This document shows positions 44,349 to 50,070 of a stretch of 64,000 nucleotides of DNA, piece after piece. The stretch lies in contig NZ_PRDB01000010.1 in NCBI RefSeq assembly GCF_002925905.1, forward strand, positions 124,001 through 188,000, read 5' to 3'. The notes under the pieces were generated by a model. It made no database searches. It was not told the DNA's origin and saw nothing but the letters and a program-made list of their open reading frames with translations. Within the stretch, counting starts at the first letter, position 1. The number at the start of each line of letters is the position of its first letter. The DNA is from Klebsiella michiganensis (GTDB taxonomy: Bacteria > Pseudomonadota > Gammaproteobacteria > Enterobacterales > Enterobacteriaceae). A program made the position numbers and the translations under genes.

Positions 44349-44670
44349 ACGTGCTCCGTAGTGTGAGGAAGCCATGCTAGCGCGCGGGGGGCTGGGGCGC
44401 AAGGGGACTCAACGTGCGCGACGGAAGAGGCGTTTTGCAATGTCACGAAAATAACAAAAAAATTTGATGTTCTCTTTTTCGTCATTTCTGTAATGGCGTT
44501 TTGAAATTAATTATCAATTAAAAAACAATGGAATGACCATTTATAACGTGAATGACTATGGTGTTTTTTTCTCAAATATTCCTCTGTTGTGATAATAAAA
44601 TAAAAAATCTGTAACAAAAAATAAACAAAACGCTTCTATATTGGCCCCTTCAATTTTTGGGGGGAGTGAC
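44349..44670. promoter_or_regulatory. AT-rich upstream region of the TonB cluster with a Fur-like box at 44502-44516
   Basis: A 322-bp gap without a gene. TGAAATTAATTATCA at 44502-44516 matches 12 of 14 defined positions of the 7-1-7 Fur consensus TGATAATNATTATCA, with a perfect right arm. It sits 155 bp before the exbD start. The stretch from about 44440 to 44640 is markedly AT-rich compared with its flanks. No confident -35/-10 pair was assigned. Confidence 0.65.
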
Positions 44671-45078
44671 ATGCGTAACTGGAGTGAGCCTAAAAAGAAT
44701 AAAGCCCATATCGAGCTGATCCCGATGATCGATGTGATGATGTTTCTACTGGTTTTCTTTGTCCTGATTAGCCTGAATGTGATCCCGGCTCTGGGCTTGA
44801 AAACGCAGCTGCCGTCGGCCGGCAGCGCCCAACAGCTTAAACCGCAAAAAAAAGCCATTATCACCCTCGGCGCCGGCGACCAGCTGCAGCTTGATGGCCA
44901 GCCGCTGCCCCTGAATGCGCTGGTCAATACCCTGAAGCAACAGCAGCAGGAAAACCAAACCACCACCATTATCGTGAACAGCGATAAAGAGGTTGCGGTG
45001 GAACGCCTGATCGCCGTGATGGATACCCTGCGTCAGGGTGGTTTCTTCTCCATTTCCATTGCCACACGGAAGCAGTGA
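44671..45078 (+). CDS. ExbD/TolR-family proton-channel subunit of an accessory TonB system
   Basis: 135 aa. One N-terminal membrane helix (about 17-38) carries the essential aspartate (Asp21 in PMIDVMMFLLVFF), followed by a periplasmic TolR-like domain (LQLDGQPLPLNALVNTL, VAVERLIAVMDTLRQGGF). ATG at 44671 with GGGGGAGTGAC upstream. First gene of a five-gene unit: exbD, tonB, receptor, exbB, PLD. With ExbB it would harvest proton motive force for TonB. The chromosomal exbBD and tonB of the genus are not in this window, so this is presumably a second, dedicated set. Confidence 0.9.
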   Translation: MRNWSEPKKNKAHIELIPMIDVMMFLLVFFVLISLNVIPALGLKTQLPSAGSAQQLKPQKKAIITLGAGDQLQLDGQPLPLNALVNTLKQQQQENQTTTIIVNSDKEVAVERLIAVMDTLRQGGFFSISIATRKQ

Positions 45079-45079
45079 T

Positions 45080-45811
45080 ATGTATCTGCTTTATCGCTCA
45101 CGTCACGTTGTTAGCTGGCTACCCGCCCTTGTCATCGCCGGATGTTTACTGTTTGTCAGCCAGCAGGCAGTGCTGCAGGTCAAACCGCATTACGACGATA
45201 CGGTCATGGAACTGTCGCTGGCTGAACCCGAACCGCCGCAGCCGGAGCCTGTCCCAGAACCGCAGCCGCAAATTCAACCTGAGCCGGAACCGGAGGCGGT
45301 CGCTGAACCCGTCGTTTCTGCGCCAGAACCCATTATCCAGGCCAAACCGGTTGTTAAACCGAAAGCCAAACCCAGGCCCAAACCGGTTGTGAAGGAAAAA
45401 GCGCCGAAACCGCAGGCGATCGCGGCTCCGCAGCCCGCCGCCGTTCGTAGTCCGGTGAGTAAACCGGCCCCGCCGCCTTCTCCCCCGGCGCCGAAGGCGA
45501 ACGCGCAGGCGGTGGAAAACGGCTATCTGCAGGCGCTGCGCCGGGAGCTGGAGCAGCGCAAGCGCTACCCGAGCGGCCGTCAGGCTTCGCTGGAACGTCC
45601 GCAGGGCAACGTGGAGGTCTGGCTGGAGGTTGACCGCAGCGGCAGAGTGCTGGCTTCCGGTATTGCCAGCAGGGCGCCGAACATGCTGCTCAATCGCGCT
45701 GCGCTTAGTTCCCTGCAAAGCATCAGCCAGCTGAAGCCCTTTCCTGAAGAGGCTTTTGCCGGACAAAGCAGCAAAAAATTTACCGCGACGTTTAATTACC
45801 AGGCGCCATAA
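45080..45811 (+). CDS. TonB-family energy transducer
   Basis: 243 aa. N-terminal membrane anchor (about 12-30); then a long rod of Pro-Glu and Lys-Pro repeats (about 48-155, EPEPPQPEPVPEPQPQ then KPKAKPRPKP); then a C-terminal TonB domain (about 160-243) with YLQALRRELEQRKRYP and GNVEVWLEVDRSGRV. The YP motif needed for TonB-box contact is present (KRYPSG). Start 45080 is one base after the exbD stop, with GGAAG upstream. Sits directly before the receptor it most likely serves. A TolA-like role is less likely given the receptor. Confidence 0.92.
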   Translation: MYLLYRSRHVVSWLPALVIAGCLLFVSQQAVLQVKPHYDDTVMELSLAEPEPPQPEPVPEPQPQIQPEPEPEAVAEPVVSAPEPIIQAKPVVKPKAKPRPKPVVKEKAPKPQAIAAPQPAAVRSPVSKPAPPPSPPAPKANAQAVENGYLQALRRELEQRKRYPSGRQASLERPQGNVEVWLEVDRSGRVLASGIASRAPNMLLNRAALSSLQSISQLKPFPEEAFAGQSSKKFTATFNYQAP

Positions 45812-45845
45812 GCCTAATTAATCATTTGTTTTTACAGGAAAAGAA

Positions 45846-48086
45846 ATGAAAAACTTTAATTATTCTGGGATTGCGTTAGCCGTGGTGTCGGCCCTGTTAT
45901 CGGGGGCCTCACTGGCGGCGGAAAGCAGCGACGTGGGGGAGATTAACGTTAAGGGGCAATCGCTCGGCGGCGGTCTGATGGTGCAGGAAGACAGCGGCAA
46001 AGCGCGTTCCACCCTGACCAAAGAGGCGATGGAAAAAGCCCCCGGCGCCAGCAATGCTATCGACATGCTGAAATATACGCCGGGAATGAACGTCAACAGC
46101 AATGACGCCAGCGGCCTGAGCGGTATCGACTACACCATGCGCGGGATGAACTCGGATCAGATCGGCCTGTCGATGGACGGCATCCCGATTAACGACTCGG
46201 GCAACTATGCGGTCTACCCCAACCTGCTGGGCGACGCGGAAAACCTTGAGCAGATCTTTGTCACCCAGGGCTCTTCCGAGGCTGACGGCCCGCATATTGG
46301 TTCCAGCGGCGGTAATATTGGCCTTGTGACAAAGCGTCCCTCAAAGGAGTTTGGCGGCTTCGTCAAACAAACGCTCGGCAGCCATAACCTCAGCAAAACT
46401 TTCGCTCGTCTGGAGACCGGGGAGTACAACGGTTTTAGCAACTGGCTCTCGTACTCGCATACTGAAGCCAAAAAATGGCGCGGGGAGGGGCGTAATTATT
46501 CCGATAAGTTCGAAATGAACTCGCTGTACGAGGATGGCAACGGCAACAGCAGCAACCTGATCATGAAGTATAACCGTCAGGATAACAGCAACTATAACAC
46601 CCTGAGTAAAGCGCAGTTCGAAGAAGACCCGCGTCAGGACTACTCGACCACCCCGGTCTACAACAGCAAAGGTCAACTGAGCAAATATTACAAGCTGAAC
46701 CGTAATCCGTTTGAAACCTTCACCCTCTCTTTTGCCCAGCGCTTACAGCTGCGCGATAACCTCGCGTTGACCGTTCAGCCCTATTACTACTGGGGTAACG
46801 GCGGCAGCTTTACCGGACAAACGGCCTCGGTGCTGTCCAATACGTCTGATACCGCCGGACAGTACGATCTCAGCAACCTGACTTCTAATACCTATTACCG
46901 GCCTTCGTGGACCCAGACCTGGCGGCCGGGCGTTACCACGAAATTGAAGTGGGATATTAACGACGAACACAGCCTGGATATTGGCTACTGGTACGAGCGC
47001 GCGCGTCAGTCGCAGACCCAGCCGTTTATTAGCATTCAGGACGATGGCAACCCGGCGAACGTTTCCGGCAAACCGGGCGGTTCCGATCAGGTTAAAGATG
47101 CGAACGGCAATACGGTACAGGGGCGTAACCAGTACACGGTGACTCCTGCGCACAAAGTATGGCTTCAGGACAGCTGGTTCGTGACGCCGGACTGGACGCT
47201 GGTGGGCGGGCTGGCTTATCAGTATGTTGAACGTAAAGGCGATAATAAAGGCAGCCTGTATAGCGCTGCGGAAAAACGCCAGGCGACCTACCATGAATTC
47301 CTGCCGAACTTTAGCATCAGCTATAAGCCGGATAGCGAAAATCAGCTGTTCTATAACCTGACGCGCAACATGCGTACGCCACCCAACTACGTACTCTACA
47401 ACGTCGGCGATTCGATCAGCACCAAACCTGAGCTGAGCTGGAACCACGAGCTGGGCTGGCGTTTTCAGCGCGAAGATATGCTGCTGAGCGCGACGCTCTT
47501 CTATATGCGCTATACCGACCGGCAGATTTCGACCACCAATGCGGATGGTGACTACGAAATGATGAACATCGGCAGCGTGGAGAGTAAAGGTCTGGAGCTG
47601 GAGTGGAGCGGTAAGCTGCCGTACAACTTCAACTACTACACCTCTTATACCTACACCCATTCCGAACAAAAAGACGACATTGTGAGCAACGGCGGACATC
47701 CGCTGCCAACGGCGGGCAAAACGGTGCCAAACGTACCGAAAAACATGCTTAACGCGTCGCTGGGCTATGATGATGGTCTCTACTACGGCAGCTTCGGCGG
47801 CAAATACGTCAGTTCGTTCTACGGCGATTTGACCAACGACGAAAAAATCGGCGGGCGCACGGTCTTTGATGTCGCCGCGGGCGTGCATCTGCCGGTGGAT
47901 AAAAAGATTGTCAAAAGCGCCACCCTGCGCTTTGGCATCGATAACCTGTTCGATAAACAGTACCTGACCTCCGTCCGCTCGACGACTTTTAACGCGGCGG
48001 CTTACGACGGCGTGAAGGCCAGTACCCCGTACTACAACGTTGGCGAAGAGCGCACCTTTAGCGTCTCGCTGGAAGCAACCTTTTAA
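45846..48086 (+). CDS. TonB-dependent outer-membrane receptor, ligand unknown
   Basis: 746 aa. Signal peptide with cleavage near Ala24 (GASLA/AES), then a possible TonB box around DVGEINVKG (29-37). There is no N-terminal sigma-signalling domain. The plug domain (about 45-165) contains MLKYTPGMNVNSND, MRGMNSDQIGLSMDGIPIN and GSSGGNIGLVTKRPS. A 22-strand barrel follows, ending in Phe746 (VSLEATF). ATG 45846 with AGGAAAAGA upstream, 34 bp after tonB. The upstream Fur-like box suggests a ferric siderophore or similar, but I do not recognise a known receptor, so no substrate is proposed. Confidence 0.93.
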   Translation: MKNFNYSGIALAVVSALLSGASLAAESSDVGEINVKGQSLGGGLMVQEDSGKARSTLTKEAMEKAPGASNAIDMLKYTPGMNVNSNDASGLSGIDYTMRGMNSDQIGLSMDGIPINDSGNYAVYPNLLGDAENLEQIFVTQGSSEADGPHIGSSGGNIGLVTKRPSKEFGGFVKQTLGSHNLSKTFARLETGEYNGFSNWLSYSHTEAKKWRGEGRNYSDKFEMNSLYEDGNGNSSNLIMKYNRQDNSNYNTLSKAQFEEDPRQDYSTTPVYNSKGQLSKYYKLNRNPFETFTLSFAQRLQLRDNLALTVQPYYYWGNGGSFTGQTASVLSNTSDTAGQYDLSNLTSNTYYRPSWTQTWRPGVTTKLKWDINDEHSLDIGYWYERARQSQTQPFISIQDDGNPANVSGKPGGSDQVKDANGNTVQGRNQYTVTPAHKVWLQDSWFVTPDWTLVGGLAYQYVERKGDNKGSLYSAAEKRQATYHEFLPNFSISYKPDSENQLFYNLTRNMRTPPNYVLYNVGDSISTKPELSWNHELGWRFQREDMLLSATLFYMRYTDRQISTTNADGDYEMMNIGSVESKGLELEWSGKLPYNFNYYTSYTYTHSEQKDDIVSNGGHPLPTAGKTVPNVPKNMLNASLGYDDGLYYGSFGGKYVSSFYGDLTNDEKIGGRTVFDVAAGVHLPVDKKIVKSATLRFGIDNLFDKQYLTSVRSTTFNAAAYDGVKASTPYYNVGEERTFSVSLEATF

Positions 48087-48105
48087 TTAACCGGAGGGCA
48101 CTCTG

Positions 48106-48753
48106 ATGGATGCCAATCTGATTCACGATATTATTTTCTACGTTATGTACGCCGCGCTGGCGATCGCCGTGGTGATACTGGTTGAACGCGGCCTCTATTT
48201 TTCGTGGGCCCAGCGTCAGGCTTTGCGCTTTGAAAAGGCGCTGACGCCGGACGTTCGCCGCGCGTCGGATCTGCCGGAATCGCTGACCGGCCGCAGTAGC
48301 CTCCCGCTGACCCTCATTCTGCCGGTGCTGGAGAAAAAGCAGACGGCGGAAGACCGTGAGGCGATGAGCGATCTGATCGACGCTCAGTATCTGCTCAGCA
48401 AACCGCAGATGTCGCGTGGGCTGTGGATGCTTGAAACCGTTGTCACCGCCGCGCCGCTGCTGGGCCTGCTGGGGACGATCCTCGGTATTATGGATACCTT
48501 TAAGGCCCTTTCCGCCTCAGGCGTCTCCGATGCCAGCATGGTTTCTGCGGGTATGGGGACCGCCCTGTATGCCACCGGCCTGGGCATTGCTATTGCGCTG
48601 CTGTGCCTGGTGGGCAATAACTATTTGCAAAGCCGCATGGAGCGAATCAACGAACTGCTGAAGGTGCTGCTGATCCGCGCCGGCAGCCCGGTCAGCCGTC
48701 CGGAGCAGGGCGGCAAACGCTGGGAAGGCCACGAGGCGCAGCGCTATGCCTGA
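48106..48753 (+). CDS. ExbB/TolQ-family subunit of the accessory TonB system
   Basis: 215 aa with three membrane helices: about 8-28, then 107-130 (TVVTAAPLLGLLGTILGIMDTF) and 148-175 (GTALYATGLGIAIALLCLVGNNYL), the MotA/ExbB domain. ATG 48106 with CGGAGGG upstream, 19 bp after the receptor. In most loci exbB directly precedes exbD; here the two are at opposite ends, separated by tonB and the receptor. Its last 8 bases overlap the next gene's start. Confidence 0.92.
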   Translation: MDANLIHDIIFYVMYAALAIAVVILVERGLYFSWAQRQALRFEKALTPDVRRASDLPESLTGRSSLPLTLILPVLEKKQTAEDREAMSDLIDAQYLLSKPQMSRGLWMLETVVTAAPLLGLLGTILGIMDTFKALSASGVSDASMVSAGMGTALYATGLGIAIALLCLVGNNYLQSRMERINELLKVLLIRAGSPVSRPEQGGKRWEGHEAQRYA

Positions 48754-49996
48754 ACATGGTCAATGCGGGTGGCCGGCAGGCCGCCTGATGAGCGCACTGG
48801 CGGGGAGCTGGATGCTGTTAAGCCAGCCGGTATGGGCGGCGTTCTCTATACCCGGCTACGAGCTGGTGTATAACGCGCCGCAGGAAACCACCTTACAGGA
48901 TAACGATTTACGTCATGCCGCCGAAGTCTGGCAGCAGATGTTCGATGCGGCGCGCAGCCATATCGATCTGGCGCAGTTTTACGTGGCGAATGAAAAAGGC
49001 TCTCTGCTGGATGGGGTTCTGGCACGTCTGCGGGCCGCCGGGGAGCGTGGAGTAAAAATTCGTTTTCTGATGGAGGAGAAGGGCGTGGGCCTTTCAACGC
49101 CGGAAACGCTGACGGCCCTGAAAGCTATCCCCAACCTGGAGCTGCGGGTGATTCCGTTCCATCGGCTGACCGGCGGTATTGTTCACGCCAAGTATCTGCT
49201 GGTGGATGGCAAAGAGGCTTTTGTCGGTAGCCAGAATTTTGACTGGCGCGCGCTGGAACAGATCCAGGAGACCGGTCTGCGCATCAGCGATCCGCAAACG
49301 GTGCAGCAGATTCAGGCTATTTTCGATCAGGACTGGCAGGCGCAAGCTCTGCTGGCGGAGAGTAAGCCGGTACCGAAGCCGGCGAGGCAGGCGGTAGCGT
49401 CGGCCCCGCAGGGCAATTATCTGGTTGCCAGCCCGCGCGATTATAACCCGGGCGGGGTGATTGATTCGCAGGTGGCGCTGCCGCGGCTGCTGGCGAGCGC
49501 CAAATCGCGGATCCGGGTGCAGGTGATGGACTATGCGCCGCTGGCGTGGGGAGAAAAGGGGAGCCGGCCCTTTTATGCGCCCATTGATAACGCCCTGCGC
49601 AGCGCGGCGGCCCGCGGCGTACAGGTGGAGCTGATGGTGGCGAACTGGAACCTGAAAAAGCCGGAGGTATTCTGGCTGAAGAGTCTCTCTCTGGTGCCAA
49701 ACGTTCAGCTAAAAGTGGTGACCATACCTCCCGCCAGCCGAGGGTTTATCCCCTTTGCCAGGGTGGTACACAGTAAGCTGATGACCATCGATGGTACGAC
49801 GGCGTGGGTCGGAACCAGCAACTGGAGCGGAGGCTATTTCGATAACTCACGCAACCTTGAGCTGGTGCTGAATAATGCGTCGATGGCCGCGCGCGTGGAC
49901 GCGCTTTACAGCCAGCTGTGGAATAGCCGCTATGCGGCGCCGATCAAGGTTGATTTTGATTATCCGGTTCCGCATCCTGGCCGCGAGTTCGAATAG
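48746..49996 (+). CDS. Exported phospholipase D-family protein linked to the TonB cluster
   Basis: 416 aa with two HKD catalytic motifs: H147-K149-D154 (HAKYLLVDGKEAFVGSQN) and H342-K344-D349 (HSKLMTIDGTTAWVGTSN), both intact. An N-terminal export signal (LMSALAGSWMLLSQPVWAAF) suggests the periplasm. ATG 48746 overlaps exbB by 8 bp; a second Met at 48788 would give a shorter, cleaner signal peptide and is a fair alternative start. The two-HKD layout resembles the PLD3/PLD4 and poxvirus K4 group of phosphodiesterases and nucleases; the substrate cannot be read from sequence. Overlap suggests co-translation with ExbB and a role tied to the imported ligand, which is inference. Confidence 0.88.
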   Translation: MPEHGQCGWPAGRLMSALAGSWMLLSQPVWAAFSIPGYELVYNAPQETTLQDNDLRHAAEVWQQMFDAARSHIDLAQFYVANEKGSLLDGVLARLRAAGERGVKIRFLMEEKGVGLSTPETLTALKAIPNLELRVIPFHRLTGGIVHAKYLLVDGKEAFVGSQNFDWRALEQIQETGLRISDPQTVQQIQAIFDQDWQAQALLAESKPVPKPARQAVASAPQGNYLVASPRDYNPGGVIDSQVALPRLLASAKSRIRVQVMDYAPLAWGEKGSRPFYAPIDNALRSAAARGVQVELMVANWNLKKPEVFWLKSLSLVPNVQLKVVTIPPASRGFIPFARVVHSKLMTIDGTTAWVGTSNWSGGYFDNSRNLELVLNNASMAARVDALYSQLWNSRYAAPIKVDFDYPVPHPGREFE

Positions 49997-50009
49997 ATAA
50001 ATCGGCTGA

Positions 50010-50050
50010 GGCTTCCCCTCTCCCGAAGGGGGCGAGGGGAAGCCTGTTTT
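50010..50050 (+). terminator. Terminator of the TonB cluster
   Basis: 11-bp stem GGCTTCCCCTC/GAGGGGAAGCC (50010-50044) followed by TGTTTT, 13 bp after the PLD-family stop. Also lies after copA's stop on the other strand. Confidence 0.8.
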
Positions 50051-50070
50051 CGCCCTCGCCAGAGGCTGCC

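What the first reader, a model, noticed from the sequence alone, without database searches (positions are those of the whole stretch)
44671..49996. Self-contained TonB system with its own receptor and an exported phospholipase-D-family enzyme
Five same-strand genes (exbD-like, tonB-like, receptor, exbB-like, PLD-like), spaced between 34 bp and an 8-bp overlap, replace the E. coli ybaQ position between ybaP and copA. A dedicated energiser for one receptor is uncommon in enterobacteria, and a two-HKD phosphodiesterase in such an operon is not one I recognise. A possible reading is import of a ligand processed at a phosphodiester bond in the periplasm. Seen: gene order, motifs, overlaps. Inferred: common function.
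Basis: partly seen in the sequence, partly recalled or inferred. Interest (0 to 1): 0.72.

Follow-up and report, generated by a model that had tools for sequence, protein, structure and literature searches.

The report
TonB import operon with PLD3-like nuclease
A small set of genes in a Klebsiella gives one outer-membrane receptor its own energy motor and an exported enzyme related to the human lysosomal nucleases PLD3 and PLD4, and the company these genes keep in other bacteria suggests that they feed on DNA or RNA fragments.

The parts
44587..44646 (+). conserved promoter-like block (about -84 to -25 of exbD), with TATATT near its end
   Evidence: aligned in 10 enterobacterial and erwinial loci (several different upstream genes), many invariant columns; no Fur, Pho or PurR site shared by the lineages
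44671..45078 (+). ExbD-family protein
   Evidence: PF02472 9e-34
45080..45811 (+). TonB-family protein, proline-rich
   Evidence: PF03544 5e-5, slightly under cut-off; NCBIfam tonB_Cterm over cut-off
45846..48086 (+). TonB-dependent outer-membrane receptor
   Evidence: PF00593 4e-47, PF07715 1.5e-14; AlphaFold model pLDDT 79, pTM 0.80, nearest solved folds PqqU, PiuA, YncD, FecA
48106..48753 (+). ExbB-family proton channel
   Evidence: PF01618 6e-27; one of three MotA_ExbB matches of the genome
48746..49996 (+). exported two-HKD PLD-superfamily enzyme, orthologue of SpPLD, PLD3/PLD4-like
48746..48838 (+). signal peptide of the PLD (by eye; a start at 48788 is also possible)
   Evidence: sequence; the orthologue SpPLD has a published predicted 32-residue signal peptide (PMC8004604)
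49184..49237 (+). first motif H147xK149x4D154x6GSxN164
   Evidence: H147, K149, D154, G161, S162, N164 invariant in alignment A5, 26 rows; same spacing as PLD3 H201xK203x4D208x6GSxN218 (PMC10783504)
49754..49822 (+). F337 and second motif H342xK344x4D349x6GxSN359
   Evidence: same spacing as PLD3 H416xK418x4E423x6GxSN432; F337 at the place of Y411, on which the first base stacks in PLD3

Best explanation
A dedicated TonB import system for nucleic-acid fragments. The receptor binds single-stranded oligonucleotides or nucleotides outside. Its own TonB-ExbB-ExbD motor drives them into the periplasm. The Sec-exported PLD3/4-like enzyme then removes nucleotides from the 5' end, and periplasmic phosphatases (5'-nucleotidase or PhoD encoded beside the module in other genera, housekeeping enzymes here) release nucleosides and phosphate for uptake. 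Shown: gene order, domains, conservation, the PLD3-type active-site spacing and fold, the neighbours in relatives. Inferred: ligand, direction of transport, exonuclease activity, use as nutrient.
For: (1) PLD is PLD3/4-like by sequence, active-site spacing and predicted fold. (2) In the family of Duganella sp. SG902, 30 of 52 PLD loci read have 5'-nucleotidase, PLD and S1/P1 nuclease together with a TonB receptor; 29 of these 30 also adenosine deaminase, 28 guanine deaminase, 27 a nucleoside-type ABC permease; some are cut by contig ends (domains on examples). In 3 of these 30, and in named L110, the receptor belongs to the family of the window's receptor. (3) 9 of 20 full modules there have a 5'-nucleotidase between exbB and PLD. 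(4) The receptor family without PLD: 30 of the 40 such places were read; 21 of 30 have a 5'-nucleotidase beside the receptor or its exbB, 27 of 30 some nucleic-acid or nucleoside gene. These 25 genomes hold 0-4 such 5'-nucleotidase genes each, and in 21 of 25 one lies at the receptor. (5) In the two genomes of L097 and L098, whose receptor is 57% identical to the window's, the only 5'-nucleotidase match of the genome is next to the PLD. (6) PhoD lies near the module in 26 of 65 named loci, in Pseudomonas-type loci and, arranged differently, Pandoraea.
Against: In the window's own clade no nuclease or nucleotidase other than the PLD was found in the operon. A UshA-like gene lies about 2 kb from it in Klebsiella, but that order is also E. 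coli's (recalled) and proves nothing. The receptors in the strongest nucleic-acid contexts are only 31-34% identical to the window's. Nucleic-acid neighbours are shared by descent within clades: on the tree the 5'-nucleotidase label needs 6 changes and the TonB label 6, so the independent events are few. The PLD also occurs without module and without these neighbours (L072, L117, L187, Duffyella L189) or among peptidases (Sphingomonas L188). Three of 30 PLD-less receptor loci show no nucleic-acid gene (L240, L242, L248). The receptor's nearest solved folds carry PQQ, ferric citrate or siderophores.
Confidence: 0.58

Rival explanations
1. Nucleotide or nucleoside (not polymer) import: the receptor takes up mono- or dinucleotides or a nucleoside-bearing cofactor, and the PLD cleaves a small phosphodiester such as a dinucleotide.
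For: Some receptor paralogues sit with nucleoside hydrolase, purine permease, ribokinase-like kinase or PnrA-type ABC genes, with no match to the nuclease and nucleotidase representatives used (L243-L247). The nearest solved receptor fold is PqqU, which carries a small ligand.
Against: Nucleosides pass the outer membrane through Tsx and porins without TonB (recalled). S1/P1 nuclease is in 30 of 52 PLD loci and 12 of 30 PLD-less receptor loci, which points to polymers.
Confidence: 0.2
2. Import of a siderophore or other metal ligand that is released by phosphodiester cleavage in the periplasm (the usual job of TonB receptors in enterobacteria).
For: Receptor models include TonB-siderophor (below cut-off). 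The window and K. grimontii have a 12-of-14 match to a 15-base Fur palindrome about 170 bp upstream of exbD (0 and 1 of 60 shuffles as good), K. spallanzanii 11 of 14 there.
Against: The Serratia, Pectobacterium and Pseudomonas loci reach at most 10 of 14 anywhere in the 300 bp. Among the 40 commonest neighbour families, seen as first residues of one member each, I recognised no siderophore synthesis or metal ABC gene; only some were run against Pfam. The copA neighbour is specific to Klebsiella among the loci read; other genera have other neighbours.
Confidence: 0.1
3. A phospholipid or other non-nucleic phosphodiester (glycerophosphodiester, teichoic acid) as phosphate source, with the PLD as a true phospholipase D or phosphodiesterase.
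For: The crystallised orthologue was named a phospholipase D. PhoD in Pseudomonas-type and Pandoraea loci and a phytase-like protein in four Pectobacterium/Samsonia loci fit phosphate scavenging in general.
Confidence: 0.09
4. The PLD is a periplasmic guard nuclease against incoming phage or foreign DNA and only shares a transcript with the receptor.
For: PLD persists without the module in some genomes (L062 with a receptor remnant, L072, L117, L187).
Against: Long conserved linkage to the receptor and to catabolic genes. No PADLOC search was run.
Confidence: 0.03

Closest known systems
SpPLD, Serratia plymuthica AS9 (PDB 7E0M, PMC8004604)
   Same: Orthologue: phmmer 2e-201 over residues 32-414, 76% identity in the structural alignment; two HKD motifs, signal peptide. 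All 14 named Serratia loci (L044-L057) carry the PLD in the five-gene order of the window.
   Different: The paper treats it as an isolated phospholipase D; TonB does not occur in its text. Substrate untested there.
Human PLD3 and PLD4, lysosomal 5'-3' exonucleases
   Same: H-x-K-x4-D-x6-GSxN and H-x-K-x4-D/E-x6-GxSN (motifs read for PLD3), aromatic residue at the base-stacking place, same fold over about 360 residues.
   Different: Bacterial and exported by a signal peptide, where PLD3 is made as a type II membrane protein (PMC10783504); D instead of PLD3's E in the second motif; activity and dimer untested.
TonB-ExbB-ExbD systems with linked receptor
   Same: All four parts with their domains.
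   Different: Order exbD-tonB-receptor-exbB with an exported phosphodiesterase; no metal or heme gene in the operon.
Pld1 of Klebsiella pneumoniae (T6SS insertion, PMC4068068)
   Same: Two-HKD PLD-family protein in Klebsiella.
   Different: Lies in a type VI secretion locus (passages); the window gene lies in a TonB operon. The two sequences were not compared here.
Purine and nucleic-acid scavenging loci of Oxalobacteraceae (Duganella, Massilia, Rugamonas, Janthinobacterium)
   Same: Share the PLD, a receptor and a 5'-nucleotidase.
   Different: Mostly an Oar-type receptor, and no ExbB/ExbD/TonB found beside it; they carry the deaminases and nucleoside ABC genes that the window's operon lacks.

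Membership tests
TonB-dependent import system | receptor with plug and barrel | tested here: met
   model
TonB-dependent import system | TonB, ExbB and ExbD proteins encoded with it | tested here: met
   TonB_C of Pfam is 0.5 bit under its cut-off for the start used, 26.2 bits and over it
TonB-dependent import system | energised transport of a ligand | not testable with these tools
   needs uptake assays
PLD3/PLD4-type exonucleases | closest solved relatives by sequence | tested here: met
   after 7e0m, PLD3 2e-54, poxvirus nicking-joining enzyme 5e-51, PLD4 2e-48; phospholipase D entries from 2.5e-4
PLD3/PLD4-type exonucleases | two H-K motifs with GSxN and GxSN in one chain | tested here: met
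   against the motifs given for PLD3 in PMC10783504; the acidic residue of the second motif is D here, E in PLD3
PLD3/PLD4-type exonucleases | aromatic residue stacking on the first base (Y411) | tested here: met
   F337, with Y or W in some rows of the alignment; position by spacing, not by a DNA complex
PLD3/PLD4-type exonucleases | 5'-3' exonuclease activity on single strands | not testable with these tools
   the SpPLD paper asks whether it hydrolyses nucleic acid and leaves it open
PLD3/PLD4-type exonucleases | homodimer through helices 10 and 11 | not tested
   no multimer prediction made
phospholipase D proper | closest similarity to Streptomyces or human PLD1/2 enzymes | tested here: not met
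T6SS lipase effector Tle5/Pld1 | encoded in a T6SS locus | tested here: not met
   neighbours are tRNA_edit (ybaK-like) and TraB-family (ybaP-like) proteins by Pfam, UshA- and CopA-like proteins by eye; the rest of the window was not searched for T6SS genes
siderophore uptake operon | Fur control and metal-ligand genes | tested here: inconclusive
   Fur-like match in the Klebsiella loci; no metal gene in the operon
nucleic-acid utilisation locus | nucleotidase or nuclease genes linked to the receptor | tested here: inconclusive
   met in relatives; within the window's own operon only the PLD could qualify, and its activity is untested

The most novel reading that the evidence does not exclude
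The first TonB-dependent outer-membrane import machine for nucleic-acid polymers: a bacterium outside the competence-pilus route pulls single-stranded DNA or RNA fragments through a TonB receptor with a motor of its own and digests them in the periplasm with the bacterial counterpart of the lysosomal nucleases PLD3/PLD4.
Probability: 0.4. Interest if true: 0.9.

Novelty: new variant of a known kind. Interest (0 to 1): 0.74.

Why it matters
Nucleic acid is a large pool of phosphorus and nitrogen, yet how Gram-negative bacteria bring nucleic-acid fragments through the outer membrane for food is, to my knowledge, poorly known. A 2024 review of TonB transport has no word beginning with 'nucleic' and no 'DNA uptake'; its hits for nucleotide and nucleoside concern gene sequences, the Tsx porin and references (PMC11658791, find only). 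If right, this gives a defined receptor, motor and enzyme to test. It would also correct the name of a crystallised enzyme from phospholipase to nuclease, and place a bacterial relative beside PLD3/PLD4, which in humans limit nucleic-acid sensing in lysosomes (recalled; PLD3 in PMC10783504).

Tried and rejected
Regulatory sites: Fur, Pho, PurR, Zur and CRP consensus scans upstream of exbD gave no site shared by all lineages. The Serratia loci have a 9-of-10 CRP-like site near -232 (8 of 10 in the window); not pursued.

K. pneumoniae Pld1 (T6SS) was considered as the same protein and set aside because of its different locus; no sequence comparison was made.

The class-wide genome sample was too thin: PLD in 2 of 369 genomes. 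Family samples were used instead.

E. coli: no megablast match to 44400-50070 in the collection of 5,426 genomes. Plasmids: 5 records, Chimaeribacter, Duffyella (3) and Sphingomonas.

Receptor fold search gave only general TonB receptors in the 50 rows shown, no hint of ligand.

Paper searches, all on open-licence PMC text, listed at most 20 papers each; no listed title or abstract start describes this module or TonB-driven nucleic-acid import. That is a search of listings, not proof of absence. Papers read in passages only: PMC4068068, PMC8004604 (also outline and abstract), PMC10783504, PMC6555301, PMC11658791, PMC7992965. Of the other papers only the listing and the start of the abstract were seen.

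Rows dropped: one search kept the best 80 of 310 encoding stretches. One search gave 55 genomes with PLD; 52 regions were fetched (G708 and G709 are fragments, G584 was already held as L099), and 4 of the 52 repeat named loci (L103, L112, L115, L088). One search listed 63 receptor places; 23 were already covered with a PLD; 30 of the other 40 were fetched (not G682, G660 and eight matches of 337 bits or less). One search gave 10; 9 were fetched and the tenth is L074; L210, L212 and L213 lie on contigs of the same length as those of L073, L076 and L083. L085 and L096 are cut by contig ends and count as 'no module' among the 80; they were left out of the change counts on the tree. Tables were cut by the tool for genomes without a match.

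Gene neighbourhoods rest on my own ORF picking and phmmer with one representative per family, checked by Pfam or NCBIfam on examples only. L244, and the permeases of L246 and L247, were judged by likeness to L243 and L245, and the exported nature of the adenosine deaminase was judged by eye.
Full report
WHAT IS THERE. The window lies in a 6.19-Mb genome. The best named match to its PLD is Klebsiella grimontii at 99%, so this is a Klebsiella of that group. Five genes on + run from 44671 to 49996: ExbD, TonB, receptor, ExbB, PLD, with gaps of 1, 34 and 19 bp and an 8-bp overlap. Domains are confirmed, TonB_C marginally. The genome has four TonB_C and three MotA_ExbB matches in all, so this motor is additional to others.

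WHERE IT SITS. Of 20 genomes of the genus, 4 have the PLD. All 20 have the ybaP-like gene. In 16 copA lies directly beside it; in the four carriers exbD starts about 300 bp from it. The nearest PLDs outside the genus are in Entomohabitans (93%), Superficieibacter (88%), Pantoea coffeiphila and Erwinia sp. JUb26 (86%); where the contig is long enough to tell, their neighbours differ from those in Klebsiella, which suggests horizontal transfer. No match was found in the E. coli collection.

IT IS A CONSERVED UNIT. A genome-contig scan kept 80 of 310 PLD-encoding stretches. In 65 of the 80 at least three of ExbD, TonB, receptor and ExbB lie beside it, in Klebsiella, Serratia, Erwinia, Pantoea, Pectobacterium, Pseudomonas, Acinetobacter, Pandoraea, Collimonas and others, mostly in the order of the window. 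In Pandoraea the PLD is divergent from the other four, and in genome G087 the receptor lies on the other strand beyond the PLD (L122), yet they stay together. In 198 genomes of the own family the receptor at E <= 1e-60 is in 9, all with the PLD close by. PLD at the same cut-off is in 14, five of them without the receptor: G103 with a receptor remnant, G016, G020, G162 with a stop inside, G137 at 33% identity. In 248 genomes of the family of Pseudomonas viridiflava L074 (G593), 10 have PLD and all 10 the module. Across the class it is rare: 2 of 369.

THE COMPANY IT KEEPS. In the 80 named loci, 15 lack the module by the counting rule. Ten of these are Oxalobacteraceae with a different locus: guanine deaminase (10 of 10), adenosine deaminase with a leader-like N-terminus (10), a receptor (Oar-like in 9, of the window's family in L110), 5'-nucleotidase (10), PLD, S1/P1 nuclease (9) and a nucleoside-type ABC permease (9) (domains PF00962, guanine deaminase model over its cut-off, PF02872, PF02265 on the example L099). 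L099, read further, also has XdhC, a PnrA-like binding protein, an ABC ATPase and a second permease. The other five are L062, L072, L117 and the contig-cut L085 and L096. In an independent sample, 55 of 195 genomes of that family have the PLD. Of 52 loci fetched, 20 have the full TonB module, 9 of them with a 5'-nucleotidase between exbB and PLD; 30 are of the purine type, all 30 with 5'-nucleotidase and S1/P1 nuclease; L174 has PLD with another receptor and a nucleoside hydrolase some 8 kb away; L187 has PLD alone. In 3 of the 30 purine-type loci, and in named L110, the receptor belongs to the window's receptor family (342-359 and 338 bits). It is 49-52% identical to the Pandoraea module receptor and 31-33% to the window's. 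PhoD (PF09423 on examples) stands near the module in 26 of the 65 named loci, and 5'-nucleotidase in 3. In the two genomes of L097 and L098 the single 5'-nucleotidase match of the genome is that one, and their receptors are 57% identical to the window's. In the Serratia, Erwinia, Pantoea and Klebsiella loci no match to these representatives over 80 bits was found; a UshA-like match of 71-72 bits lies upstream in the Klebsiella loci.

THE RECEPTOR WITHOUT THE PLD. A receptor profile in the same 195 genomes gave 63 places in 56 genomes. Of the 40 without PLD, 30 were read. 21 of 30 have a 5'-nucleotidase beside the receptor or its exbB; 12 of 30 an S1/P1 nuclease (11, L230); 8 adenosine deaminase; 6 guanine deaminase. 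Of the nine without 5'-nucleotidase, two have PnrA-like ABC genes next to exbB (Pfam on L243, L244 by likeness), three a purine permease with nucleoside hydrolase and a ribokinase-like kinase (Pfam on L245, L246 and L247 mainly by likeness), one the S1/P1 nuclease, and three nothing of the kind that I saw (L240, L242, L248). So 27 of 30 show such a gene. These 25 genomes hold 0-4 (mostly 1-3) 5'-nucleotidase genes each, and in 21 of 25 one of them is at the receptor. For a random place the chance would be of the order of one in a hundred or less per genome (my estimate), though the genomes are related.

READING. Two unrelated parts, receptor and PLD, are each tied to nucleic-acid breakdown and nucleoside salvage, also in each other's absence, and the PLD looks like a single-strand exonuclease. 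The simplest common ligand is nucleic acid or its fragments. The module of the window would then be a self-powered form of the same trade. The weak link is that the enterobacterial clade carries no nucleotide gene in the operon, and its receptor is 31-34% identical to the best-placed receptors; the Pseudomonas-type receptors at 57-58%, with PhoD or 5'-nucleotidase, bridge this in part. On the PLD tree (133 rows, four pairs identical) both the TonB label and the 5'-nucleotidase label need 6 changes, so independent support is a handful of events, not dozens.

CONTROL REGION. A block from about -84 to -25 of exbD is conserved in ten enterobacterial and erwinial loci. No Fur, Pho or PurR site is shared by the lineages. 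A Fur-like 12-of-14 match occurs in the window and in K. grimontii, 11 of 14 in K. spallanzanii.

VERDICT. Real, conserved, and not described in the titles and abstract starts listed by my searches. Its parts are known kinds; the combination and the proposed cargo are new to me. Function is predicted, not shown.

Noticed in passing
L088, L099, L105, L108, L110, L113 and others: Oxalobacteraceae carry a compact nucleic-acid scavenging locus (guanine deaminase, adenosine deaminase, Oar-type receptor, 5'-nucleotidase, PLD, S1/P1 nuclease, nucleoside-type ABC genes) that seems worth a study of its own.
   Followed up: partly
L243-L247: A second copy of the receptor, mostly with its TonB-ExbB-ExbD genes and without PLD, sits beside nucleoside ABC genes, or beside a purine permease with nucleoside hydrolase and a ribokinase-like gene.
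   Followed up: partly
L065, L066, L067, L069: In Samsonia and three Pectobacterium loci a phytase-like protein (PF13449 on L067) follows the PLD on the same strand.
   Followed up: no
L074 and 19 other Pseudomonas-type module loci: An M20-family peptidase gene lies downstream of the PLD (20 of the 65 module loci); its link to the module is unexplained.
   Followed up: no
L062, L070, G162: Signs of decay: Chimaeribacter californicus keeps the PLD with only a receptor remnant, one Symbiopectobacterium locus has a split receptor, one genome has a stop inside the PLD.
   Followed up: no
L044-L057, near -232 of exbD: A CRP-like palindrome (9 of 10 fixed bases) recurs upstream in the Serratia loci, 8 of 10 in the window.
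   Followed up: no
PDB 7E0M: The deposited 'phospholipase D' of Serratia plymuthica is probably a PLD3/4-like nuclease.
   Followed up: partly
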